Of a stretch of 64,000 nucleotides of DNA, positions 7,274 through 59,684 are shown piece after piece. This DNA comes from Termitomyces sp. T153. Taxonomy: Eukaryota > Basidiomycota > Agaricomycetes > Agaricales > Lyophyllaceae. Under the pieces are notes generated by a model, which was not told the origin of the DNA, made no database searches, and worked only from the letters and a program-made list of their open reading frames with translations. Numbering within the stretch: the stretch's first letter is position 1; each line of letters opens with the position of its first letter. Position numbers and translations under genes: made by a program. Location: positions 186,001-250,000 of the forward strand of contig JACKQL020000050.1 in the NCBI GenBank assembly GCA_018296165.2, in the 5' to 3' direction.

Positions 7274-7372
7274 TGCCCATGCCGAGGATTGAACTCGGGA
7301 CCCTTGCATTTTAGTATGTAAGTGGCCAGTTAACCTCATAAGTACAATGCTCTACCACTGAGCTACACGGGC
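7274..7372 (-). tRNA. tRNA-Ile (anticodon UAU) with intron
   Basis: Read on the minus strand, a seven-pair acceptor stem (GCCCGUG with CAUGGGC), D arm GCUC-AGUGGUA-GAGC, anticodon stem UUGUA/UGCAA and T arm CCGAG-UUCAAUC-CUCGG fold as a standard tRNA, with discriminator A at 7274. The loop begins C-U-UAU, giving anticodon UAU (7338-7340). A 27-nt intron (7310-7336) sits at the usual 37/38 position and contains AUA, able to pair with the anticodon. Fungal tRNA-Ile(UAU) genes commonly have such introns. Position 37 would be G, where A is usual. A and B boxes are intact with CpG. It lies 73 bp beyond the COG3 stop, at the edge of the gene island. Confidence 0.85.
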
Positions 7373-25520: not shown

Positions 25521-25778
25521 TGTTAAAAATGAAAAGTGACTATACCAGGAATTGAATCTAGGACCTCTTAGATGTGTACTCCATATGATGCTCTAACCAC
25601 TGAGCTACATGGTCTAGTTACACAAGGAGCTAGGAAGTTACATATAAGTACCTTCTAGGCATGAGATGATTCTACTACTGTGATAATTGGCTCACTGCAG
25701 GGACTGGAACACTAAATAGCATTGTGTAGAAATCAGAGCTCTAAGCTGTCAGATGACTTGACCTGTCATCATCTAACA
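25521..25778 (-). repeat. Solo LTR of the tRNA-bearing TRIM, TSD AAGAG
   Basis: 258 bp starting TGTTA and ending TAACA, flanked by AAGAG at 25516-25520 and 25779-25783. It matches both LTRs of the complete TRIM at 59 kb. The tRNA-like unit (25538-25614, minus strand) keeps the A box TAGCTCAGTGG; the B box has changes. A solo LTR implies a former full element resolved by LTR recombination, inserted into Gypsy-A. Confidence 0.88.
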
Positions 25779-30329: not shown

Positions 30330-30610
30330 TGTTAGAAATAAAAAGTGACCATACCAGGAATTGAACCTGGGACCTCTTGGATATGTACTCCATATGATGC
30401 TCTAACCACTGAGCTTACATGGTCTAGTTACACAAGAAGCTAGAAAGTTACATATAAGTACCTTCTAAGCATGAAATGATTCTACTACTGTGATAATTGG
30501 CTCACTGCAGGGACTGGAGCACTAAATAGTGTTGTGTAGAAATCAGAGCTCTAAGCTGTTAGATGACTTGCCATGTCAGGAGGGTGTTTTAGATGATGAC
30601 AGGTCAAGTC
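30330..30610. repeat. Rearranged TRIM: minus LTR joined to an inverted second end
   Basis: A minus-orientation TRIM LTR begins TGTTAGAA at 30330 with its tRNA-like unit at 30347-30424. At GATGACTTG (about 30562) it switches into the opposite strand of the TRIM internal end (CCATGTCAGGAGGGTG) followed by the first 25 or so bases of a plus-orientation LTR. The switch point is a short sequence common to both partners, suggesting template switching. Confidence 0.7.
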
Positions 30611-30715
30611 ATCACATTAACCTTCTATAATCACTGTTGTGACCATGGAAGGTTAGGTGCTCAGGCCTAGGTCCAAGACAGAGTTTGATGGAGCATTGAA
30701 GAGTGCTCCAATGAG

Positions 30716-41547: not shown

Positions 41548-43011
41548 TTACATTTGTAGACTATTCAGGATTTCCTGATAGACAATATTTGCAGTCTTTC
41601 TTGATGTGTTTTCTGGGTCCAAAATCATTTTGATATGATCTCCTGATGTGTACCAAGAGAGTGCAACATAAAGTTGGCCATGTGAAAAAACTCCTGATCA
41701 AAGGTCCAATCCAACATGCTTGACTGATTGACCCTGAGACTTGTTGATTGTCATAGCAAAGACCAATTGAACTGGAAATTGTCTCCTGTGCAATGGAATT
41801 GGCAACTCCTCTTCAGAGACATCCATGTTGATTCTTGGAATCAAAACAATTGATCCTGCAAACTTGGCATCCCCACTGATGATCCAACATCTGAAAACTC
41901 TAGTGCTGATGTGGGTGACAATCATTTTTGTCCTGTTGCAAAGTCCTTTAGTTGTATCCAGATTCTTGAGCAGCATGACAGGAACACCAATCTTCAGAGC
42001 CAATTTAGCTAAAGGCAAATTACTGGCTTTCAAAGAGTTGAGGTATTCCATTGAATACAATGTCAGGTCATTCACATTTCCATCATTAGACATGACAGAG
42101 TCTGCACTCTGCATAACCTTCTCTTCTCCTAGATATTTCTGCAGAACCTCTGAGTTGATATCCTCTATATCAGAGTTCTTGCCAGAAAGAATAGTTCAGT
42201 CCAGGTAATACTGATCATCTTGATAGTGATTAATATGAGGATAAGTGGAAGAGATTAATCCTTTGATAGAACTGTCATCACAGATCATAGTTGCAGGAAG
42301 TTGTACTGTTTCTCCAGGCCTAAGATTTTTTCCAGCACTAACATCTAACAACTATGCTGCATGAGCAGCATTATCAGGAGTCTGATCCAATTTCATGTTT
42401 TGAACCAAATAGTGAACTTGAATCTGATCCCAAAGTCTTCCTCTTTTGAGTGAAGCAGCAATCATCTGCTGCCTGAGTCCCCATTGAATAACTGGAAGAG
42501 TTTGCCAAAAATCTTCTCCAAACACCACAGTCACTCCACCAAAAGGCATATCCTTTTCCAGGATATCTCTGAACCCTTGATCCACAGAGTCAATGGCATT
42601 TTTGTGTTGCATTGGGACTTTATTCCAGATAACAACTTTGGTCTGAAGTAAGAGTTGAGACAACTGAGTTCCTCTTTTGATACTGGCAATGGATGTATCC
42701 AGAGCAGGAATGGGGATTTTGAACCTTGAATGTGCAGTTCTACCACCCTCCAGCAATAAGGCAGCAATCCCGAATGATGCTACATATAATGCCACATCTC
42801 CATTGGACTGAACAGCAGAAGCTAAAGTGTTGCAGACAAATGTTTTGCCACATCCACCTGCACTATGAATGAATATCATCTTGCCCAAGTTGTTGTCCAC
42901 AGAGTTCATAACTTCATTGAAGGCCCCTAGTTGTTCACCATTAAACCTGGCCTTGTTTTCATTCACCCTTCTCTTCAACTCCTCAATATCATAATTTGTT
43001 TCTTCTTGCAA
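41548..43011 (-). pseudogene. Helitron PIF1-type helicase domain (broken)
   Basis: Minus-strand text IHSAGGCGKTF is Walker A (about 42860-42840). Walker B, normally WDEVPM, reads WNKVPM (codons at 42619-42624), both acidic residues lost by G-to-A changes. GGDFRQTLPV reads GEDFWQTLPV. Downstream motifs include GVPVMLLKNLDTTKGLCN, TINKSQGQS and GQLYVALS, with the stop at 41548-41550. Stops near 42360 and 42200 break the frame. The helicase unwinds DNA during rolling-circle transfer. Confidence 0.9.
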
Positions 43012-43056
43012 AAGTCTATTGCCTAAAATTGTTTGATCAGTCCTAGAGTCAATTCT

Positions 43057-46000
43057 CTATACAATGGCTGGCTTACCTGGAATTACATTCCAAACTTGTT
43101 GAGGTTCTGGCATGTTAGGAAAGTCTTGAAGAGTCTTGCCAAAATTCTTCAAGTTGTCATTGATCAGATGAAGGCCATAGTCATAAACATCTTCATCAGT
43201 AAAGACTCTATCTCTGTACTGCTGGATATTCTCCAATCTGTGTCTAAGATCATCACAAATAGAGTGGTTGAATTCATTCCATAGAGCCTCTGGAGTGGTA
43301 GGAGCACAGTGAAATAGTATAGTGCAAAAGAGCTGTTTAAAAGCTGATCCTGATTGGATTGGAGCAGCTTCAGCAAGACATTGCCTCCATTCTGCATCAT
43401 CTTCCAAAAGGCCAAGGGCCTTGCATGCCTCTTTGTAAGTAGGATAGGTGTGGCCATTGACTGTCCTAAGGTCAGGCCATGATTTTGCATTCATCACAAC
43501 TGTCAGGAGCATCCTAAGGTAGAACCTTTCTTCCTGTCTGGGTGAAGCAAAGTACATCCTTCCAATAGCTGTTCCTCTTTGCCTCTCCTTCCAACTTCTT
43601 TTAGAAGCTTCATAGACAAACTTGATTGGAAAGCTCTGATAAGTGGTGTTGTTATTAGGGAATCTGGCATTGGCTTCAAACCAAGCAGTAAGTGCAGTCT
43701 TGTCTGCATTAGGCCTGGCAGCTACAATCTCCAAAGGTTCATTATCCTGGAAGTAAACTTCATGCTGGCCTTCCAAATGAACAGGTAATTGATACACAGG
43801 AGGATATTGTCCATGCATGTTGAATTCAAAGATGTGCCAGCATGATTCAGGTACAGAGATGTATCTGGCATCCAAGTGTTCCTTGATTTCATTCCTCTGG
43901 TCCATCTGCTCTCCACCAATCTCCAAGGTTGTCCTATCATGGCCTTTGTAGATGTACTTGTGAATGTATTTGATGGCTTCTACTGAAGTGCAGACCTCCA
44001 CATTGATGTGGCATTGATACTTGGCTGAGAGATAAGGATTGTATGGGACAACATCATGATTGTCATAACAATGACCATTCCTTTCAAAGAAGTGCCCATT
44101 GTCAGGTCTGGCATATTGAGGATAACCATTTTCCCCATACTGAGTAGCTTCTTGAAATTCCTTTGGGTATATTTTGGAACATTTGCCATCTACCATGCAT
44201 TTAGCATTGAGTTTGGCAGCTCCACATGGACCATGGACCATGTTAGTAGTAACAACCTAATAACAAACTTAAGTAATGGGATTAAGAATTCAAACAAAGC
44301 CAATACCTGATACAAATGAGGCTGAGTAGCTGGATCTGGAATTTGAGCTGAGACAATAGAATCTACATGAGCTGCATTCTGTATCCTATGATGATGATGG
44401 AAAAAAATCAAGATATGCATATGTGGAAGTCCTCTCTTTTGGAATTCAATAGTATGAACATGAGCCACACAGCTGCCAAAGAGACCCTCTTTAATCTCCT
44501 TTACCACAGCATTTTTCCTGAGTTCAAATACTCTGGCAACAATATCTGATTGATCAGCAGCTGTTTGTTTTTTTCCATTGACTGCAAGTTCCTTCAAGAG
44601 AGCTTCTTTAATTTCTGACCACTTTGAATTGACAGTCATAGTCAAGAAGAGATCAGGTTTTCCAAAATGCCTGCAGATAGCCATAGAGTCCTGGAATAAT
44701 TGCTGCATTTGTCATTCACTTCCAGTATGGGAGGAAGGAAGAATAACACAATGGCTTTGTGGGGTAACTGCCTCATCTCTAGCAGCAGCATCTACTACTC
44801 CCTGATAAACCTCAGCTCTGATCTTCTTCTGATTGTGTCAAACCAAATTCAACTTGTTTTGTTCACTTGAAGCCCATGCATCAACAACATATTGTTGAAA
44901 TAACCTTCCACTCCAGAGTAATGCTGCATTAACTTCTAAAGTTCTTTTCTGCAGTCTATATGCATAATATGCAGTTTGAGTGACCTTTGGTGCTCTTTGT
45001 TGATTCTCTGGCCCAAAATGAGAGTGAATATTTATGTGAAATCCTGGCTCTCCAGTTAGAAACATAATAGTATAATGCAATGGAGTATAATATGGGTGCA
45101 AATAACTGATCTGCTTCAATTGGCCTCCATGCAAATGCAAGACTATATCACAATGATCTGATCATTCTTCTGAGCCATCTTCAGGAATTATAGCTGCAAC
45201 CCCCTCCTGTTCATTGGGGTTATTATGGCATCATGTGTCTCCAAAATCAGCTCTAAGTGTGACAGAAAGTCTTTGTGGTCAGCCTTCTGGAACTTCTCTC
45301 ATAATCTGCCTGGCTTGCTTATATAAATCAATGAAGGGGTTGACTCTAGCAAGCATATCCTGCAAAGAGGCCATTATTTGAAGATCCAACCTGGAATTAT
45401 TCTGTTGATGAAGAGCCAATTGCTGGTTGTGGTTATAAAAATAGAGTTGTGTATATACAGGATGATTACCTTCAATAGGAAGCAAGGCACCTGTCAGATA
45501 ATGGAGTTCTCCATTGATCCTAAAGCTATATGGTCCAGGAGCATTTGTAATAGCATAATCAATTTGAACTCCCAGAGATGTGAATGCAAAGGCTGCATTG
45601 TATTGACAGATATATGCTTTGAAAGTGTCAGAGAGAGGATGGTGGCCATGGAGTAAGCTGAGTAGTTCAGGTGGAGCATCTTTGAGTCTGGGCAAATTCA
45701 CTTGGCCTTGTAAGCAGCACATTCCAAACTTTGGATTGTTTTTAGTAGACTTAGTGAGCGTTTTCAGCATCAAAATGTAGAGCTTGACAGTGTGGACATA
45801 TGACACTCATAGGACCAAGATAATAAGATGGGGGTTCTATCAAGTAAGGCTGCCTTCCTCTGGGAATAGGCTGAACAGGTCCAGGCTCTTGTATTTGTGG
45901 AATAGGAGGATGAACAGGAGGTGGTTCCAGTTGTTCTGCTGGTAGATTATCATCAGGAAGTTCTGCTGGTATATGTCTAGCAGAATCCAAGTCATCTTCA

Positions 46001-46203
46001 TGAAGTATGTCATTCTGAGGACCATGTTCAGCAGGATCAACATATTCCAAGTCATCTTCAGGAGGTATGTTATTCTGAGGAGCCAAGCCATTAAAGACTT
46101 GTTCTCCAAAATCATTCATATTTTCCCTAGGTTCTTCAAAATGTTCAAGAGGGTGCAGCATCATTTCATTGAAGGCCGCATTCATCTTAAAGAGCAAAAC
46201 CAT
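43057..46203 (-). pseudogene. Helitron Rep/HUH endonuclease part (broken)
   Basis: From 46203 the frame reads through an acidic, proline-rich segment to CPHCQALHFDAE, then in a shifted frame NPKFGMCCLQGQVNL (45700), to REVPEG (45280), RGGQLKQISYLHPYY (45130) and QDSMAICRHFGKPDLFLT (44700). The HUH motif PHMHIL is intact at 44415-44423. The paired-tyrosine motif YIHKYIYKGHD is intact near 43940-43970. The largest intact frame is 43057-44241 (394 codons). Rep nicks and joins the element ends. About five frame breaks show it is dead. Confidence 0.9.
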
Positions 46204-48129
46204 TGAAATCCTCTTCTAAATCAGCTATATGTTGGCCCTCCCATAGTTGTAAAATCCTTTGAGCTAGAACATTATTGAAAGGCCTATGTTCAGGATCTTG
46301 CTCTGCTAATATTTGCTCATGTCTCTCTTGTCTCTGTCTAGCCTCCTCCTGCTGAGCAGCAAGTCTTTGTTCCTTTGCTAATCTCTGATCATATCTTTCT
46401 TGTCTTTGTCTTGCTTCTTCTTGCTCAGCAAAGAATCTCTGTCTTTACTGCTCCAATGCAGCTAATGCATCTGATTGTTGAGCAGCAAGCCTCTGTCTAT
46501 TCTGTTCCTGAGCAATATTTTTTGTCTTTGTTGCTCTTGAAAAGCTGCTAATGCTTGTTGCTCTTGAGATGCATTATAATTAGACATCATTTCTCTATAA
46601 GCAATATTTCCTCTGGTCAAGTTATTCAGTGCAGGATCAGCTTGTCCACTGGAGATATTATGTAGTGGTTGAGGGAGCCCTCTATGTCCAGAAGAAGAGG
46701 TAGATGCAACATTAGCAGTAGGAGCAAGGGATGTATGTGTTTAATTTTATATCTATGCTGATTCCTTCTCAAAACAGGTGCAGCAGGCACATTCTGAGGA
46801 ATAGGATTCTGCAATGGAGCATCCCAACCCTCAGGTAAATGTGTTACAGGAGGTATATATATGCTCTGGCCCACAGGAGCATTCAAAGAAAATGAGTCAT
46901 CAGAGATAGCTGGCAGTCTTATAGGTCTTTCAGAAGATCCAGAAGCAACATCATTTATAGAGGGGGCATTAGTACTCCTACCCAGTGCTATAGAATCAAA
47001 ATGCAAAGGTTGCACAAGTGGCATAGCAGCATTAACCTGTTCAAAATTATAGGAAGAAGCTCTATTACCTTGGTTTGCATGTTGATCATCAGGATCAGTC
47101 ATTTGCAACAATTGTAGTCTACTTTGAGAGCAAGACTGTTGTCTTTGACTCTCAAGAGTACTGGGTAGTTCCTGGGTAGAAGGTGGCCTGAATTTTATCA
47201 ATAAACAAAGTATCAAAAAATAGTTAATAAGTACTCACATAATCAAGGCTTGAAAAGTAAACTGATAAAAAGTATTGGAAGTGCTCAATAAAAAACAATG
47301 TTTGATTCTGAATTCAAGCTAATGAGTGAGAGCCACATATAAAATGGCTCAAGTATGATGTGAGGATAAGAGCAAAGGATTTTACTGAGAGAACATGAAG
47401 ATCAACTGTCAGCACAGAAAAAGAGATTTACCTTGAAGTAGAAAACCAATAGCTGCTTCAAAAAAAAACAGATACTGCTCACAAATCAGCTCTCAGATAA
47501 ACCTAGAGAAAACATACCTGCAAAGCTACTGAATGCACAGAAAAAAAGCTTGATAAAGACTGCAGTGAAGTCTGTTTTCAGTCATGATCAGTCAATAGAG
47601 ATGACTCTCAGAAAAGAAGTATATATAAGAAATTCAGCTTCTATACACCATCAAAATCAGCCATCAGACAATTAGGCAAAGAAAAAAAGGCCCACATCAA
47701 GGACAGAAAGCAACTCAATGCTAAGAAATAGCCTGATAAAAGATGCAATAGTGAAGATCTGGTTATCAGTTTGATCAGTGATTGGAGATGACACTCAGTA
47801 GTAGAATAATACATGGCCAAGTAAGTGAAGCCTCTTCAGAAAAGTCTATCAAGCCAATCAAAGCCTTTTCTCATAGTATCAAAGCAGAGACAATGTTGGA
47901 AGCTTCAGTTTTCAGGAAGAAAGAAAGAGAGATTTGGTGCGATGTTTTTGATGTTTATGTGATCAATATATCTTTCCAAGAAACTGGCCAAAAATTTGAA
48001 GCCAGCCAACTTATGTAATTTTACATAAGCATTACATAAGGATTGATGGAACCCAGTTTCTTAAGATTTATCATTGCATATAATAAGGTGCACAGCCACT
48101 TTCCCAGGAGTCGTCCCATATACTATAGA
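46204..48129 (-). other. Helitron 5' region with Gln-rich coding remnant
   Basis: Minus-strand frames 46626-47216 (TDPDDQHANQGNRASS, HLPEGWDAPLQNP) and a Gln/Arg-rich coiled-coil-like run (46400-46600, repeated RQ-RDKRDM text) look like the N-terminal extension of the Helitron protein. From 47217 to 48129 no coding sequence is evident; three related segments with ATCAGTTTGATCAGT-like text recur (47580, 47765). One of the few CpGs of the element (CGAC) lies close to the 5' end. Confidence 0.6.
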
Positions 48130-49738
48130 TTCCACTTCCAAATGATTTCTTTGCTAGCTTCTACAGCAGCAATGTATTCTGCTTCAGTTGTGAATAAGGA
48201 ACAACTGATTGAAGCTTGCTTGTGGATAAAGCAACAAATAATTGAAGCTTGCTACTCCATCCAATAGCTCAACCACCAATTGTAGTCAGATAACCACCAG
48301 TAGAATGGCCAGAATCAGGACAATCTCTATGTGAGGCATCACAGAATGTAGTAAAGGATTGAATGCCAGCATCAGCATTGAAATGGAGTCTGTAATCCAT
48401 TGTGCCTTTACAATAGTGCAATAAATGCTTGACTGCAGCCCAATGCTTGGTTGCTGGAGAGGAATTGAAGTGTCCAAGGTGTGAGACTGCATAAGCAATA
48501 TCTGGCCTTGTTATAGTAGCCAAATACTGCAGTGAACCAATTGCATTTAAACAAGGCACATTGCATCTCCTCCTCCTCTGCTTCATTCTGTGATGTCATG
48601 GCTTTAGAGAGTTTGATTCCAGGTGTCATTGGAGTAGATACTGGATTGCAATCACTCATTTTATAGCACTCCAATATGTCAACAATGTATTGACATTGTA
48701 AGAGTAAAAGTCTCTGTGTATCTGAACACCTAAAAGGAAGTGGGAAGGGCCCAAGTCACAGATTTTGAAGTGCTTTTTGAGGTCATCAATAGCAGAGTCA
48801 AGTGCAGCAGTAGATTTGAAAGCAAGTGTAATGTCATCAATGTAGATGGACATAACAATCTTGACTTCTCCTCTGACATAGAGATAGATAGAGCAGTCAG
48901 ATTCAAGTCTCCTGAAGTCCATTGATGATAATGCTCCATGTAGTTTCTTGTTCCACTGCCTGCCTGCTTGCTTTAGACCATAAAGTAACTTCTTGAGCCT
49001 GAGTACCTTCTTTCCATTCTGAAACCCCTCTGGTTGAACCATATAGATATCTTCTTCCAGATCTCCATTGGGGAAAGCAGAAGTGACATCCACAGAGTGC
49101 AATTCTATGTCCTCTATGCCAGCAATAGCAAGGATGAGGTGCAAAGATGCAGGTAATGTTGGTGCAAAGACTTCATTATAGTCAATGCCAGGATGCTGTG
49201 CATAACCCTTTGCAACAAGTCTAGCTCAATTGAGCCATCTGTATTGTGCTTGATGCAAAACACCCATCCACAGCCTATTGCTTTCTTGCCTTCAGGCAAG
49301 TCACACTCCTCCCAAGTTCTATGAGATATACTCATCATCTGCAGCTTGGTACCACTTCTTGGCATCCACAGACTTCATAGCCTGTTTGAATGTCCTAGAG
49401 TCTGAAGAAGTAGCCATTCCAGCAAATTGAACATCCTCAAAACCAGGGTCAAGTGGTTCTGGATCAGGTTCAAGATCAGATCCCAGATCTAATTCTGCTT
49501 GGACTTGCTCTTCTTTCTCATTAGAACTATCCTGGACTGGTTCCTGATGTTGTACTACCCACCAATCTCCTGGAGGCTGTACATTGCATTTAGAGCATCT
49601 CAGAGCAAGGGGAGATGATAGAGGAGCAAGAATTTGAGCTGGTGGCTGAGCTAGTAGCTGAGCTGAATGGTGTCTAGCACAATTCGGACAAGGTCTAGAA
49701 GGTGCTGGAGCAGCTGGTGGTGGTATTATAGGGGATGC
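48130..49738 (-). pseudogene. Copia-2 reverse transcriptase and RNase H N-terminal part
   Basis: RT text runs SRTFKQAMKSVDAKKW (49400), GCGWVFCIKHNTDGSIE, DVTSAFPNGDLEEDIYMVQPEG, GLKQAGRQWN and the catalytic box YIDDITLAF (about 48850), intact. RNase H begins at SAIGSLQYLATITRPDIAYA (48560) and reaches FTTEAEYIAAVEASKEIIW at the Helitron junction. A stop at 48268 and frame changes near 49200, 48680 and 48600 interrupt it. Confidence 0.92.
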
Positions 49739-50196
49739 TGTTAGAATTGCTTATTGCATTCTACTATGGATGATCAGCATTTACTCCAAGTTCATTTATG
49801 ACATGTGTAGTCCACTTCCTTTATTTCTATTTAGTTTATCACATGTATCTTCCATGTGATTATCTTTCTCAATTCAATCATATGTACTTTTCATGTAATT
49901 GTCTTTCTATTCAATTCAATCACATGTATCTTCTGTGTGAGTGTCTCTCTATTTAATTCAATCACATATATCTTTCATGTGATTCCCTTTCTATTCAGTT
50001 CAATCACATGGATTCTCCATGTGATTCCTTTTATTCAGTTACATTATAGTATATATAAAAATGTAGAAGCCTAAAGTCCCCACTCAGTTTCTGACTCTGG
50101 ACTTCAGGTTAGTGTTTGCACATTACATTCAGTTTCTGACTCTGGACTTCAGCTTTAGTGACTATTCAGTCCCCTGTGCTTTGCCTATCTTTAACA
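49739..50196 (+). repeat. Solo LTR of the Copia-2 family, TSD GATGC
   Basis: 458 bp from TGTTAGAATTG to TTTAACA, opposite in orientation to its host, with perfect TSD GATGC (49734-49738 and 50197-50201). It contains five copies of the 42-bp hairpin unit. It splits the proline-rich linker between integrase and RT. Confidence 0.94.
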
Positions 50197-51345
50197 GATG
50201 CAGGCATAAGAGGTTTAGGATGTGCAGGAGGTACAAGTGGCACTTGGACAACAAATGGTTCTTCTTCCTCATTTTCAAGAGCAGGTAACTCAAACACTGC
50301 ACTTTGATTGGGGGATGCACTTTCAGGTAGGACTGATAGATCCACAGGTAAAGGAGGTGTAGGAGGTATTACTAGCCTAGTTAAGTGCAAACCAGGCAAT
50401 AAGTGCTCATCAAACTCTGCTCTTTCAGAAATTACAGTCTTCTTAGTCTCAGGATTGTAAAATAACCATCCTTTATAACTAGAAGAATATCCAATGGAGA
50501 TGCATTTTTCCATGTGAGACTGTAAAGAGTTGCACTTATCCCTTTGTATATAGACATATGCTCTATATCCCCAGACTCTGAGATAAGAGACATTTGGTTT
50601 GTGCTTGTACCATTCCTCATAAGGAGTAATTGACTAAGCTGCAGTTAGAAGTTGATTCAGAATGTAAATCTGAGCATGAAGGCAATGTGCCTAGAATGAG
50701 TCTGAGAACATTCTGTTTGCTCTCTCAGCAACACTATTCTGCTGAGGTCTATTGCAAGTTGTGTGCCTCCTTTTAATTCCACAAGCATCAGTGTATGCAA
50801 TAAACTCCTTTGATATGTACTCTCCACCTTTATCATCTTGTATAGCCTTGATTTTGGCATCTAAAGCATTCTCTGCATAAGCTTTGAATGTCTTAAAGGC
50901 ATTGAATGCTTCACTTTTCTTCTTCAGAGCCATAGCAGCTTTAAAGCTTGTGCAATCATCAATGAATGTGATCCAATAACAATAGCTCCCCATTGCAGTG
51001 ACTGGAAGAGGGCCATGTACATCACTGTGGATCAATTCTAATGGTTTAGATGCATGACTACTGGAAGAAGGAAAAGGATTAGAGCGCATTTTGCCAGCCA
51101 AACAAGGTTCACAGATGGGATCAGGCTTTGCAGCAGAATTCAAGTCCAAACCAACTACCAACTTGTTATTGATCATCTTTTTGACATCAGCATAGTTATG
51201 ATGAGCAAATCTGCGATGCCAAAGTGTCAGATCAAGTGGTAATGTGCTGGTAAGATGAGCAGACTCCAAAATAGGTGCAGTACAACCATCCAAATAAGCA
51301 GAATTATTAGAGTTGATTGTAGCACAGAATAACTCTTTTCAATTC
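50197..51345 (-). pseudogene. Copia-2 integrase (mostly open)
   Basis: The frame 51293-50691 (200 codons) holds the pre-integrase zinc site (LWHRRFAHHNY ... CEPCLAGK) and the rve core with all three acids: HSDVHGPLP, DDKGGEY and NSVAERAN. It stops, then continues (50620-50166) with YSLTWKNASPLDILLV-shifted and SIGYSSSYKGWLFYNPET text and an acidic, proline-rich tail up to the solo LTR. All catalytic residues are kept. Confidence 0.92.
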
Positions 51346-52629
51346 AACCAGAAATGCATAGCTTGTCTGTCAATGTGAATGTTGTAGCCTTTGTTTTTAG
51401 TCAAATATATACAGGACAAGAGTTTATTTCAAAGTAATGGAACATGCAAGACTCTGTGGAATTCTAAAGACCAGATTTTCTTTTCATTTACAACTGGATG
51501 GAATACAACTGTTCTAATCCTAGCTGAGTAAATAATGCTGTTATCAGTTAACCTGACTGGAGTGTGATAGGGAGCATAATTATGGACCCAATTTCAATGT
51601 GGGGTCATGTGGCAAGTGGCTCCTGAGTCTACAATCCAATTAAAGTCAGCTTCAGGTTGTATGGGAAGAGAGGGATCTGAGTGATCCAGCAAATTCTGCA
51701 TCATCTTTCTTGGACTTGTCATTATTGAAAGCTGCATTAGCTTGCTCCTGGCCCTTTTTGCCTCTTTTGTTATGAGATTTTGTCTGCTGCTTTGCTTGTT
51801 GCTGAGCTGCTCTGTATTTGTAGCAATTAGCTTGTGTGTAGCCTTGCAAGGTGCAAAAGTCACAGACAGATTTGGCTAATGCAGCATAGCAATTATAACA
51901 GTAGCAGACTCATTAGAGCAATGACAACATTGTGTTTCTTCTGTGACAAAGGGCTGATGGATTTTGGCCTTGTTCAGGTCATCTTTGAGAAGGAGAGTGG
52001 ATACAAATACTGAGAAATCATCAGGAAGCACCCAGGAAGCACCCTTATTAATGCCATAGATGCTAGTTCATTGTCTAATTTGGCAATATCAAAGTCTTTT
52101 GGGCACAAATCCTGGATTTTCTTCATTGCAGTCTCAATTCTGTTGATTAGAGTCTGCAAATTCTTTTCCTCTCCTTTTCTAATGGAAAACAAGTCATCAT
52201 AGGCATTAAAGTGTGTGCCAGGGTGTTGCTGCATGTGTATCTGCTTCAAGGCTTCCCACATCTTGTCTGATTGGTCTTATAATCATTGAGATGGATTCTT
52301 TGATTATCCTCCACCATCAAATAAATCAGACCAGATGCAACATGAGCCTCTTTCTGCCATTTTCTGTATTCTCTTTTTTCCTCTGATGTAGGTTTTTCAG
52401 AGAGTTGAGGAGCCAAAGAAGGCATGGAGATAGGCATCCAGGCATTTTGAGAGCAGATATAAGCTTCCTTTTCACTAACCCCTGAGTTATAGTTGTGGGA
52501 ATTGAGTTTGGTGAAGGTTGGAATAGATGTAGGCATGTTGGAAAAGGTGATTTGGAGTGTAGATTGAATAATAAAGTGTGGAGTTGCAGAATGCAGCAAA
52601 AAATGCATTTGAAAGTGCTTTAAAAGCAA
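51346..52629 (-). pseudogene. Copia-2 gag and protease (broken)
   Basis: Gag starts at about 52534 (MPTSIPTFTKLNSHNY), continues as HVASGLIYLMVEDNQRI, shifts frame at 52250 into MWEALKQIHMQQHPGTHFN, and ends at QYLYPLSF with a deletion or frameshift. A CHC-containing zinc knuckle remnant lies near 51930. Protease active site IVDSGATCHM lies at about 51620. Pre-integrase text follows to 51345. Two or three frame changes break the polyprotein. Confidence 0.87.
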
Positions 52630-52954
52630 TAATAGAGTGCTAGGGTCTAGTGTGCCAGAAGGAATACAGCTACAATCCAGTCGAATTGGCAGAGTTCCTG
52701 TAAGGTCCTCAGGAGTGGTGCAGCAGGAAGGTAAAGTATAGTAAAGCTAACCAACTAACTGCAGACTCTGCAATTGTAACACCTTCCAGTTAGGCATGTC
52801 AGGCTTCACTGGTGAGATAAAGCAGCCCCACTTAAAGAGTTACTACCCAATAGTTCAGAGCCTATTTGTAAAGGGAGCTGCAACCACTATAAGGACTATA
52901 GCACAGATCACCAAATCAAAATGATAAAAACTTCAGACTAAAGCTTTAGAGGCC

Positions 52955-52967
52955 AGGGCCCATAACC
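52955..52967 (-). other. Primer binding site of Copia-2
   Basis: On the minus strand GGTTATGGGCCCT abuts the end of the 5' LTR (TTTAACA). It is the half-tRNA-iMet type of site known from Drosophila copia, and the TRIM at 59 kb has the same sequence in the same place. Confidence 0.8.
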
Positions 52968-53391
52968 TGTTAAAGACAAGCAAAGCATAGGAGACTGAAT
53001 AGTCACTAAAGCTGAAGTCCAGAGTCAGAAACTGAGTGTATTGAAGTGTGACACACTAACCTGAAGTCCAGAGTCAGAGACTGAGTGGGGACTTCAAGCT
53101 TCTACATTATCTATATATACTATAATGTAACTGAATAGAAGGAATCACATGAAGAATCCATGTGATTGAACTGAATAGAAAGGGAATCACATAGAAGATA
53201 CATGTGATTTAATTGAATAGAAAGACAATTACATGGAAGATACATGTGATTGAATGGAATAGAAAGATAATCACATGGAAGATACATGTGATAAACTGAA
53301 TAGAAATGAAGGAAGTGGACTACACATGTGATAAATGAACTTGGAGTGAATGCTGATAATCCATAGTAGAATGCAATAAGCAATTCTAACA
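52968..53391 (-). repeat. 5' LTR of Copia-2 (four hairpin units)
   Basis: 424 bp; minus-strand ends TGTTAGAATTG and TTTAACA. Four 42-bp hairpin units, one more than the 3' LTR, explain the 42-bp length difference exactly. Confidence 0.93.
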
Positions 53392-54076
53392 ATCTTTACT
53401 CACCTCTTGCACTGACCTGCAGAGGTGGTGAGAGCTACACTAGCAGCTGCAGAGAAGCCCATGTCAGTGGCTCCTTCTGTGAGTGCAGCCCCAACTGAGG
53501 AGGAGCCTTTGTTGTCAGTAGCTGTGGCCACCACCAACCCAGCATTGAGCTCTGGTGTGTCTTCAGAGGATGCACCCTCAGAAGAGTCCATGGAATTAGA
53601 CTACATTGATGACTCTGCATTGACTATGACTGCCCAAACAGTGATGACTTCACAAGTCATTCTTAGCCCCACAGAAGCGGTAGTAGCTAATGTCACTACT
53701 CCTACTGCTAAGGCTAGATCCAATGGCTCCAGTGATATGGCCAACACTGTATTGGAGCACTGTGTAGACATTGTGAGCAATGAAAAAGCAGAGGCCTCAA
53801 AAATGGATGAACAAGCAGAGTGAGCTACTATTGGAGCTTACAGAAAAAGACAAAAATCAATACATCCAGGTACTAGAAGCCTGCATTCTGCACTCAGTGC
53901 AGTTGGACAGCATGCTGAGATATATTGTGTTTAGGTAGGCCTGTATGGCCCTACCAAACTTATAATGTAGGAATTTGTGATTGAATTCCAGTGCACACTT
54001 TCAAGCACCCCTTTCTATCATTACTTCATTTTGTTTTGATTGAAGTGAGTCCATTGACAGACTCAAAAGAGGGGTA
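53392..54076 (+). pseudogene. Continuation of the unrecognised 3' coding region, then purine tract
   Basis: An open frame from 53425 to 53823 reads APTEEEPLLSVAVATTNP, SMELDYIDDSALTM and NEKAEASKMDEQ, an acidic, low-complexity protein end. It follows the same strand as the region ending at 40314 and lies beside the Copia-2 TSD, so the two were probably joined. At 54064-54076 CAAAAGAGGGGTA is a purine tract leading into an LTR. Confidence 0.55.
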
Positions 54077-54279
54077 TGTAATGGAGCAGCCATTACTATT
54101 TTACTGTGCATTATTTATATGAATTATTTAACTATATGGATAGCATCACGTGATGCTATCCCTAAAACTACTATACTCTTACTTATGTAAGGCAGCACCT
54201 TATTTCATACTTTGTAGACAGAACTAATAACTGGTTCTGGTTTACAGAGTGTGAACTGTAAGCTGCACAAACCATAACA
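54077..54279 (+). repeat. Probable Gypsy 3' LTR with a 24-bp palindrome
   Basis: It starts TGTAATGGAGCAGCC after the purine tract and ends near CCATAACA. Positions 54138-54161 form a perfect palindrome centred on CACGTG, the only CpG in the neighbourhood. It is taken as the 3' LTR of Gypsy-B; no 5' partner was found near 30.6 kb, so the link is inferred. Confidence 0.6.
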
Positions 54280-54379
54280 GACATGTTACATCATTCCTTC
54301 TGCATAGTTCCTCTTGCATCCAGTAGTGCAGGGGTTGGTCTTGTCAGTCATGTTAATTTAAGGATAGGCTGTGCTGTAG

Positions 54380-55030
54380 TAAGGGCTAGTACCTAAAGTG
54401 CCAATTGCATGGATGTATTGTCTGATCAGTGTTAAGGGTGGTATCAGCATCAACACTTGGATGGAGCAGTTCATTCTCAGGTTGAATGTGTAGAGCAACT
54501 GTCTGGCATGCAAAAATGATGCCTGAGATAGTGCTGTTAGATATGGGGGTCTGTGCATATGGGGGTTCTTTGTTGTTAATGAGTTTCCTCCTCAAAAATC
54601 ACATCCCATGATGTCACAATTGATCTTGAACTTTAGTCATATAGTCAATTACTTCCCTTTGCATACCCCACTAAACATGTCTTCACCAATCTGGGATTCA
54701 GCTTGGATTTGATAAGTTCATCTGTAATCTTTGCCCATGCTAGACACTCTCATGGCCTCAAGTGATCTACCCTCTGCCTCTGATCCAAAACTCTAGAAAA
54801 GGGACATTTGACAAGCATTTGTGTCACACAAATGACAGTGGTGGCTACAGCAGTGGCACAGTCCATCTCACTCTCATCCTTCTTAGGCTGGGCAGCCTCA
54901 TCATTGTTGGGCTTTTTTGCCTTTAGGAATAATTCCTGGGATATATATCTGTGTGGCATGGTTTCTGCTCACAATTTCTTTGGGAGTCCACTTTCTGCCA
55001 GCATGCACAATACTTCCTTAAAATAGTACA
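54380..55030 (-). pseudogene. Copia-4 integrase tail fragment
   Basis: Minus-strand text MLAESGLPK-like (about 55000), IYIPGI, RVLDQRQRVDHLRP, CLAWAKITDE, VKTCLVGYAKGSN and SRSIVTSWDVIFEEE (54600) matches the region following the integrase core of Copia elements. No LTR or TSD is visible. The adjoining frame 54386-54595 is probably its linker. Confidence 0.7.
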
Positions 55031-58010: not shown

Positions 58011-58996
58011 AAAGTATTTTCCTCAAATGCTTTCAATAATATCCAACAGTTCTTGTCCTCTGCTCAGCATTTCTGTTAGTTTAACAGGCTGATTGTCAGA
58101 GGTGATTTTGCCCAGTATGTCAACCTTTTGTGCTAATTGTTCATCATAGGCTTCTTCTTTGTTAAGTATCATGGGCTTGTTTGAGTCCTGAGGCTCTTGG
58201 GATCTGAATTGTGAGTTTTGTTTTATTTATAGTACCCTTCCTTGCCCTCATTTTTCTCCTGTAAGTCTCAAGGAATGTTCAGGGCAAAATTTCTGCTCAT
58301 GTGCATCACCAACTCATGGTTGGGTTCTGGTCAGCCAGTCTCTACAAAGGCTTTATGACAACAACCACTAGATGAGGCCACCACTGCTGCCTGGTGTCAG
58401 GGGACTGCTCTTACCAGACCCTCTAACTCTTTCCTTAATTGCAAGCCTACCATCTATTGCCAACCTCTTATCTTCTGGTCACAAGTACTTTCAATTAAGA
58501 GCTATCTTTTGCTTATATTTGTACATGGTCACATGCCATGAGTCTGCAGATCAAAGCCATTTACAATTTCCTGCTTTTGGATTAGACTCTAGATTTGGTT
58601 GTTGTTGGGTGTTTTTTTCAGAAGCTTTAGAGTTAATTTTACAAACACTGGCACTGGAAATCTTTAGACTTGTTCTCTTTAGATCTCCCTCTGCCAGGTG
58701 AGTAGCTAGAACTCTAAAACTTCTTGTAAATGCTGAATAGACTTTGGATCTCCTTCTACCAATTGTGTGATTGAGCCACAGCCTCCAGAGGTTCCTTTTT
58801 GATTGCCTGAGTTTTCTATTTGGTTCTTTGTCTCTCCTCTATCAGTGTCTTGCTACTCCCTGTGCTCCTCCTATGACCCAAACAACCCCTCCAACACCTT
58901 CTTCTAATGCTTTGAGCCTCCATGACAATGCCTAGAGTTGTTTGTTGTCCCTAGAGACACAGATTCAACTTACCCAAGCTTCCCTTACCTCCTACA

Positions 58997-59599
58997 TGTT
59001 AGAAATGAAAAGTGACCATACTAGGAATTGAACCTGGGACCTCTTAGATATATACTCCATATGATGCTCTAACCACTGAGCTACACAGTCAAGTTACATA
59101 AGAAGCTAGGAAGTTACATCTTCCAGGCATGAGATGATTCTACTACTGTGATAATTGGCTCACTGCAAGGACTAGAGCACTAAACAGTGTTATGTAGAAA
59201 TCAGAGCTCTAAGCTGCCAGATACTTGACCTATCATCATCTAACACACTCTCCTGACATGGCAAGTCATATGACTTATTATCTACAATCCATTATATGAG
59301 CAGGCTGATTTAAGCACATATAAGCATTGGGGCCCATAACCTGTTAGAAATGAAAAGTGACCATACCAGGAATTGAACCTGGGACCTCTTGAATATGTAC
59401 TCCATATGATGCTCTAACCACTGAGCTACACAGTCTAGTTACACAAGGAGCTAGGAAGTTATATATAAGTACCTTCCAGGCATGAGATGATTCTACTACT
59501 GTGATGATTGGCTCACTGCAGGGACTGGAGCATTAAACAGTGTTGTGTAGAAATCAGAGCTCTAAGCTGTCAGAGGACTTGACCTGTCATCATCTAACA
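58997..59599 (-). mobile_element. Complete TRIM with tRNA-bearing LTRs
   Basis: LTRs at 59342-59599 (5', 258 bp) and 58997-59245 (3', 249 bp) flank only 96 bp. Each begins TGTTAGATGATG and ends TTTCTAACA on the minus strand. The internal part starts GGTTATGGGCCCC (primer site) and ends GTCAGGAGAGTG (purine tract). TSD is CTACA (58992-58996) versus CCACA (59600-59604), one transition apart. There is no coding capacity, so proteins must come from elsewhere; shared termini and primer site point to Copia-2-like elements. Each LTR holds a 77-nt tRNA-like unit (59359-59435 and 59014-59090). Confidence 0.9.
59359..59435 (-). other. tRNA-like Pol III unit in the TRIM LTR
   Basis: It has an acceptor-like pair (GACTGTG with TATGGTC), D arm GCTC...GAGC, A box TAGCTCAGTGG, B box GGTTCAATTCC (GGTTCGATTCC before CpG loss) and T arm CCAGG/CCTGG. 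The anticodon arm is 23 nt instead of 17 and does not fold properly, so it is not a working tRNA. The mixed GACTGTG and GACCATG ends in different copies both derive from a CpG-containing GACCGTG. Confidence 0.8.
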
Positions 59600-59684
59600 C
59601 CACACTGCTGAACTCACCAGACTATGTCAAACCATTGAAGCAGTGTCTCTCTCTCTTTAGGCCCTCCTGGAATGCCTCCCCCTG

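What the first reader, a model, noticed from the sequence alone, without database searches (positions are those of the whole stretch)
58997..59599. A TRIM retroelement whose LTRs carry a tRNA-derived Pol III unit
Seen: two 249-258 bp LTRs, 96-bp interior, primer site, purine tract, near-perfect 5-bp TSD, and in every LTR a 77-nt tRNA-like unit with A and B boxes. Known: TRIMs are non-autonomous; plant Cassandra TRIMs carry 5S rRNA sequence in their LTRs. Inference: this is a fungal analogue with a tRNA passenger, which could drive Pol III transcription or alter chromatin. At least four copies lie in 64 kb, so it has been successful. This is my best candidate for an under-described system.
Basis: partly seen in the sequence, partly recalled or inferred. 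Interest (0 to 1): 0.78.

Follow-up and report, generated by a model that had tools for sequence, protein, structure and literature searches.

The report
Fungal mini-retrotransposon with tRNA-bearing ends
A short, non-coding mobile element in a mushroom genome carries a tRNA-like promoter in both of its end repeats; it is real and well supported, but this kind of element was described in 2024 under the name Helenus.

Summary
Window 58997-59599 is a 603-bp TRIM: LTRs of 258 and 249 bp, a 96-bp interior and a 5-bp target duplication with one mismatch. Each LTR carries a 78-nt tRNA-like unit on the minus strand, the element's sense strand. The genome search found 36 LTR matches, a lower bound. 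Of 17 non-redundant full solo LTRs, 12 have an exact 5-bp TSD (swapped-flank control 2 of 272). Fifteen of 20 LTR loci scanned pass Rfam's tRNA cut-off.

The primer site is a 13-nt perfect complement of the host's spliced initiator-Met tRNA, interrupted by the intron in the gene. The same LTR|PBS pattern occurs 38 times (control 1); two of four ORFs tested behind it are Copia gag.

It is not under-described, though: it fits Helenus (Kojima 2024). New here are the host (Agaricales, near Lyophyllum), a tentative tRNA-Ile(UAU) origin instead of the labelled Thr(AGT), and a conserved short T4 run behind the unit. Only the window element kept both LTRs among the loci examined. The family looks old and CpG-stripped. 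Pol III transcription remains inferred.

The parts
58992..58996 (.). left copy of the 5-bp target-site duplication (CTACA)
   Evidence: right copy differs at one base
58997..59245 (-). 3' LTR in sense orientation; has lost 8 bp that include most of the TATA-like box
59013..59090 (-). tRNA-like unit of the 3' LTR
   Evidence: ARAGORN; Rfam RF00005 39.2 bits
59008..59011 (-). T4 run (sense) one base behind the tRNA-like unit of the 3' LTR
59246..59341 (-). 96-bp interior
59246..59255 (-). purine-rich tract (sense CAGGAGAGTG) next to the 3' LTR, presumed PPT
   Evidence: by position only, not tested against chance
59329..59341 (-). primer-binding site, 13 nt complementary to spliced host initiator-Met tRNA positions 28-40
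59342..59599 (-). 5' LTR in sense orientation
59353..59356 (-). T4 run (sense) one base behind the tRNA-like unit of the 5' LTR, possible weak Pol III terminator
   Evidence: kept in 23 of 25 copies
59358..59435 (-). tRNA-like unit of the 5' LTR with A box TAGCTCAGTGG and B box GGTTCAATTCC
59459..59468 (-). TATA-like box 24-33 nt upstream of the unit
   Evidence: pattern kept in 22 of 25 copies
59600..59604 (.). right copy of the target-site duplication (CCACA)
25521..25778 (-). solo LTR of the same family with exact 5-bp TSD AAGAG
   Evidence: L011
30330..30578 (-). LTR copy running into an inverted interior-end/LTR-start piece (to 30613)
   Evidence: L014
39997..40187 (+). truncated LTR copy, T arm of the unit partly lost
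   Evidence: L030

Best explanation
A decayed family of tRNA-bearing TRIMs (Helenus type). Shown: an LTR pair, solo LTRs with 5-bp TSDs, a primer site for spliced initiator-Met tRNA, tRNA-like units in LTRs, no ORF of 150 aa. Inferred: a host Copia element supplies Gag, reverse transcriptase and integrase in trans; a 5' fragment of initiator-Met tRNA ending near position 40 primes first-strand synthesis; the tRNA-like unit (A and B boxes, helped by the TATA-like box about 30 nt upstream) starts Pol III at the head of the unit. The R region would be the unit itself. The T4 run behind it would be a leaky terminator, giving a short tRNA-like RNA of about 83 nt and a read-through genomic RNA of about 428 nt that ends at the same T4 in the 3' LTR.
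For: Exact 5-bp TSD in 12 of 17 solo LTRs, 15 of 17 with at most one mismatch, swapped control 2 of 272; no exact match at lengths 3, 4, 6 or 7. Rfam tRNA in 15 of 20 LTR loci given, out of 30 LTR loci held. PBS 13-nt match to mature iMet; at most 10 nt in the unspliced gene of L094. The pattern TAACA(N0-4)GGTTATGGGC occurs 38 times against 1 for the reversed control; of four ORFs tested behind it, L065 and L076 hit Copia gag above the Pfam cut-off, L084 below it, L081 not at all. T4 kept in 23 of 25 copies and the TATA-like pattern in 22 of 25. T4 runs occur in the 603-nt element only behind the two units. In S. cerevisiae a T4 gives very weak pausing and no detectable release in vitro, and RNA structure can strengthen weak terminators (PMC9278858, passages).
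Against: No transcript data. The unit is no more conserved than the rest of the LTR (0.057 against 0.056). Absence of other T4 runs is not significant (47% of dinucleotide shuffles, 366 of 1274 window segments). Acceptor and T arms still pair well (167 of 173 and 107 of 117 cells), so RNase Z might cut such a genomic RNA (inference), and the same structure would help stop Pol III in the 5' LTR as well. Of 26 host tRNA genes looked at, 9 have a T4 as the first T run, so leakiness here is unproven. No Copia with a similar interior was found. Two of 17 solo LTRs have no TSD even with one mismatch (L010, L029).
Confidence: 0.6

Rival explanations
1. The same Helenus-type TRIM, but its genomic RNA is made by Pol II from the TATA-like box; the tRNA-like unit is a passenger or an auxiliary element.
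For: The TATA-like box lies 24-33 nt upstream of the unit, right for Pol II initiation at the same base. It is the least diverged of the classes counted (2 differences in 292 cells). The unit shows no extra conservation. T4 in the 5' LTR would not hinder Pol II.
Against: The low divergence of the TATA-like box is largely an A/T effect: 8.5% of equally long runs of A/T sites are as low. No AATAAA or ATTAAA in the sense strand. In plant Cassandra, a TRIM with 5S rRNA sequence, Pol III promoters and terminators are conserved (PMC7215508, passages).
Confidence: 0.3
2. Two tRNA-derived SINEs inserted side by side, or a tandem duplication of a tRNA locus, mistaken for an LTR element.
For: tRNA-derived unit, short length, no long ORF.
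Against: Solo copies with fixed TGTTAG/CTAACA ends and exact 5-bp TSDs, no A-rich tail; PBS at the LTR edge; the unit sits at the 3' end of the repeat, not at its head; the 31 scored matches to the unit all coincide with matches of the LTR query, though one (C31:592976) covers only LTR positions 4-67.
Confidence: 0.03
3. The LTRs carry working tRNA genes that add to the host's tRNA-Thr pool.
For: ARAGORN calls Thr(AGT) in both LTRs; two of four units folded come out as a cloverleaf-like fold with z -2.7 and -2.4 (L005, L013).
Against: The anticodon loop read as AGT has G at position 33 and the anticodon stem is irregular (read by eye); Rfam aligns only two anticodon-stem pairs with a long unaligned stretch. 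The other two units folded give z -0.9 and +0.6. The body is closest to tRNA-Ile(UAU), not Thr, among 46 host tRNA sequences. Kojima reads such isotype disagreement as non-functional.
Confidence: 0.04

Closest known systems
Helenus, fungal families (Kojima 2024, PMC10886601; outline, parts 1-4 of 6 of the main text and the figures/tables section read; supplement not seen)
   Same: TRIM of 311-1263 bp with a tRNA-like unit in each LTR; 5-bp TSDs; PBS and PPT; PBS mostly on the anticodon loop of mature tRNA, initiator-Met the commonest; Copia-type partner; units often labelled Thr-AGT; solo LTRs with 5-bp TSDs.
   Different: Host is near Lyophyllum (Agaricales), a group not in Kojima's Table 1, which lists Agaricus and Coprinopsis in Agaricales. 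Sequence identity to Repbase families could not be tested. Best host tRNA match here is Ile(UAU).
Cassandra (plant TRIM with 5S rRNA in the LTR; PMC7215508 passages)
   Same: Non-coding TRIM with a Pol III gene sequence in both LTRs.
   Different: tRNA, not 5S rRNA; fungus, not plant; tandem arrays were not looked for; Pol III use unproven here.
tRNA-derived SINEs (recalled; also introduced in PMC10886601)
   Same: Pol III unit of tRNA origin in a short non-coding mobile element.
   Different: LTRs, PBS and fixed 5-bp TSDs point to an LTR mechanism, not target-primed reverse transcription.

Membership tests
TRIM | two LTRs, under about 1 kb, no coding capacity | tested here: met
   603 bp, LTRs 249/258 bp, interior 96 bp; no ORF of 150 aa or more overlaps it (shorter ORFs not listed)
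TRIM | integrase-type fixed-length TSDs | tested here: met
   12 of 17 solo LTRs exact at 5 bp; swapped control 2 of 272
TRIM | primer-binding site next to the 5' LTR | tested here: met
   13-nt complement of spliced host iMet directly at the LTR edge
TRIM | polypurine tract next to the 3' LTR | tested here: inconclusive
   CAGGAGAGTG in place, not tested against chance
Helenus | tRNA-derived sequence inside the LTRs | tested here: met
   Rfam tRNA in 15 of 20 LTR loci scanned and in both LTRs of the element
Helenus | fungal members: 5-bp TSD and Copia-type anticodon-loop PBS | tested here: met
   same junction in front of Copia gag in 2 of 4 ORFs tested
Helenus | sequence match to a named Repbase Helenus family | not testable with these tools
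   Repbase and the paper's supplement are not available
TRIMp3 | transcription by RNA polymerase III | not testable with these tools
   no RNA data; boxes, T4 and TATA-like box only
Cassandra | 5S rRNA-derived sequence in the LTR | tested here: not met
   only tRNA matches at Rfam's gathering scores
functional tRNA gene | canonical anticodon arm with U33 and agreeing isotype | tested here: not met
   G33 in the read-out loop, irregular stem; body nearest tRNA-Ile(UAU) in an incomplete host set

The most novel reading that the evidence does not exclude
The tRNA-like unit is the R region of a Pol III-transcribed LTR element. A short, leaky T4 terminator splits output between an 83-nt tRNA-like RNA and a 428-nt genomic RNA, so one LTR promoter, one terminator and one R region are all made from a captured tRNA-Ile(UAU)-like gene.
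Probability: 0.35. Interest if true: 0.5.

Novelty: new member of a known kind. Interest (0 to 1): 0.3.

Why it matters
It adds a new host lineage to Helenus. It shows the primer site matching only the spliced form of the host's own initiator tRNA. It also warns that Thr(AGT) calls by tRNA finders in such genomes can be LTR relics. If Pol III really makes its genomic RNA, it would be an LTR retroelement built round a tRNA promoter, and the weak-terminator model gives a direct test for the whole TRIMp3 idea.

Tried and rejected
Selection on the tRNA unit: not seen among these copies. Depletion of internal terminators: not significant. T4 as specially weak by comparison with host tRNA genes: inconclusive, since 9 of 26 host tRNA loci also show a T4 as the first T run within 40 nt (in L095 my 3' end was placed 8 nt too far). 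A Copia partner by interior similarity: none beyond the PBS in the genome search at E 0.001 or in the 30 junction loci. Other tRNA-bearing families with this PBS: none within 1.5 kb in 28 other junction loci, 30 of 38 having been fetched. A first iMet pattern without intron found nothing. The tRNA-origin comparison used 46 sequences that ARAGORN called in 40 sources (39 loci plus the window gene), mitochondrial and some doubtful calls included, so isotypes are missing and Ile(UAU) is tentative. Folding differs by copy: two of four units fold better than shuffles (z -2.7, -2.4); the element's own 5'-LTR unit only slightly (z -0.9) and the one at 25536 not at all (z +0.6).

Limits of the counts: score only the best candidates. 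Five of the 36 matches lay outside the fetched loci and were not examined. In some searches, 25 of 31 aligned LTRs were kept (a truncated copy and five segmental duplicates dropped); the kept copies L014, L016, L021 and L030 are partial and include some non-LTR columns, which inflates divergence.

Full report
What is there. Window 58997-59599 holds two direct repeats of 249 and 258 bp around 96 bp. Both repeats start TGTTAG and end CTAACA on the + strand. The flanking pentamers are CTACA and CCACA. Each repeat contains a minus-strand tRNA-like unit (ARAGORN; Rfam RF00005 at 39.2 and 45.0 bits). The primer site, purine tract and tRNA unit all fit a sense strand that is the minus strand. The 5' LTR is therefore 59599 to 59342.

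Genome-wide copies. The window lies in a 72.4-Mb genome of 307 contigs. The 262-bp LTR query (59339-59600) has 36 matches there (lower bound). The interior is found in only 3 places. Only the window element has both LTRs complete among the loci examined: C34 has one truncated LTR, and C24 keeps one LTR and a partial interior. Of 31 LTR hits in the fetched loci, 17 are non-redundant full solo LTRs. I dropped both LTRs of the window and C34 elements, the C24 LTR, five segmental duplicates and four partial copies. Of the 17, 12 have an exact 5-bp TSD, 3 more have one mismatch and 2 have none. Swapping right flanks among copies gives 2 of 272, and lengths 3, 4, 6 and 7 give none exact. This is strong evidence for integrase-type insertion. 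Rfam finds the tRNA above its cut-off in 15 of the 20 LTR loci that I gave it, out of 30 held.

Priming. A host iMet pattern has six matches. Two were fetched: ARAGORN reads L094 as tRNA-Met with a 21-nt intron behind CCATA; L095 has the same iMet-type 5' half by eye, but ARAGORN read it as tRNA-Ala with another intron. The 13 nt after the 5' LTR are a perfect complement of the L094 tRNA, spliced, at positions 28-40. The longest match to the unspliced gene is 10 nt. Kojima reports anticodon-loop priming for most fungal Helenus and names Ty5 and Drosophila copia as known cases. The pattern TAACA(N0-4)GGTTATGGGC occurs 38 times in the genome against 1 for the pattern read backwards. Thirty of the 38 were fetched. 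Of four ORFs tested behind it, two hit Copia gag above the Pfam cut-off (L065, L076), a third hit below it, and one had no hit. Rfam and ARAGORN find tRNA units only in the two loci of this family. One junction lies in the window at 52958, upstream of Copia reverse transcriptase and integrase ORFs at 48656-51293.

The tRNA-like unit. It is 78 nt long, with A box TAGCTCAGTGG (exact in 16 of 25 copies) and B box GGTTCAATTCC (exact in 13 of 25). A T4 follows in 23 of 25, and a TATA-like box lies about 30 nt upstream in 22 of 25. Acceptor, D and T arms pair in 167 of 173, 96 of 96 and 107 of 117 cells. The anticodon arm is irregular and the loop read as AGT lacks U33 (by eye). Among 46 host tRNA sequences, the nearest is tRNA-Ile(UAU), z 10.7-11.7 for three units against 7.9 or less for the others listed. 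Its copy in this comparison is the intron-bearing gene at window 7274-7372. The Thr(AGT) label is therefore weak. The set is incomplete, so the origin is tentative.

Decay. Across 25 copies, differences from the commonest base are 355 of 6321 cells, and 209 of 355 are C>T or G>A. CpG observed/expected is 0.00-0.02 from 20 to 60 kb of the window, against 0.91-1.03 at 8-16 kb. This fits methylation-driven decay of repeats (inference). The unit diverges as much as the rest of the LTR (0.057 against 0.056), as expected for dead copies. The two LTRs of the element differ at 16 of 249 sites, and the best other copy is about 95% identical to the query. This looks like an old family.

Mechanism. The anatomy places the TATA-like box 24-33 nt upstream of the unit, the unit near the 3' end of the LTR, a T4 one base behind it and 11 bp to the LTR end. 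A Pol III start at the unit would give 83 nt to the first T4 and 428 nt to the second. In S. cerevisiae T4 hardly pauses Pol III in vitro, and RNA structure can strengthen weak terminators (PMC9278858, passages). A leaky terminator would reconcile a Pol III promoter with a full-length template. Against this, Pol II from the same TATA-like box would start at the same base, and nothing here separates the two. The absence of other T4 runs in the transcript is not significant, and host tRNA genes also include T4 runs (9 of 26).

Host. Mitochondrial atp6 of this genome is closest to an unnamed entry (93%), then, among named ones, Lyophyllum decastes and L. shimeji (91%), Singerocybe alboinfundibuliformis and Hypsizygus marmoreus (89%); 120 of 2456 hits were listed. 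The host is thus an Agaricales fungus near Lyophyllaceae (family placement recalled).

Known or new. Kojima 2024 (PMC10886601) defines Helenus as TRIMs with tRNA-derived LTR sequence. Fungal Helenus has 5-bp TSDs, a PBS mostly on the anticodon loop of mature tRNA, and Copia-type partners; its hosts include Agaricus bisporus and Coprinopsis cinerea. The element meets these features; the PPT is by position only, and the Repbase sequences could not be compared. Searches for Helenus, TRIMp3 and tRNA-bearing TRIMs in mushrooms (listings) showed no report from Lyophyllaceae; the library holds open-licence papers only. Verdict: a new member of a known kind.

Noticed in passing
L018-L024 without L021; G000 C115:52271/61215, C115:118080/127102, C67:250506/259430: One solo-LTR insertion (TSD ACATG) occurs six times as inverted pairs about 9 kb apart. 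The flanks align to L018 in one to three blocks at 99-100%. This suggests a larger repeat with long inverted arms in three copies.
   Followed up: partly
window 30330-30613: An LTR copy switches at ATGACTTG into an inverted interior-end plus LTR-start piece, a fold-back that looks like strand switching during reverse transcription.
   Followed up: partly
window 7274-7372 (-): Intron-bearing tRNA-Ile(UAU) gene, 55.9 bits in Rfam; nearest relative of the LTR unit among the host tRNAs compared.
   Followed up: yes
window 52958 and 48656-51293 (-): Copia element with the same LTR|PBS junction and reverse transcriptase and integrase fragments; no LTR pair was found in 46001-55000.
   Followed up: partly
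window 20000-60000: CpG almost absent (observed/expected 0.00-0.02) beside a block at 8-16 kb with normal CpG.
   Followed up: partly
window 42352-47216 (-): Helitron-like helicase ORFs (judged by eye from the translations, not searched).
   Followed up: no
L071 (G000:C14:1048783): Another short LTR element with the same PBS: 236-bp repeats 92% alike, 688-bp interior, no tRNA unit found.
   Followed up: no
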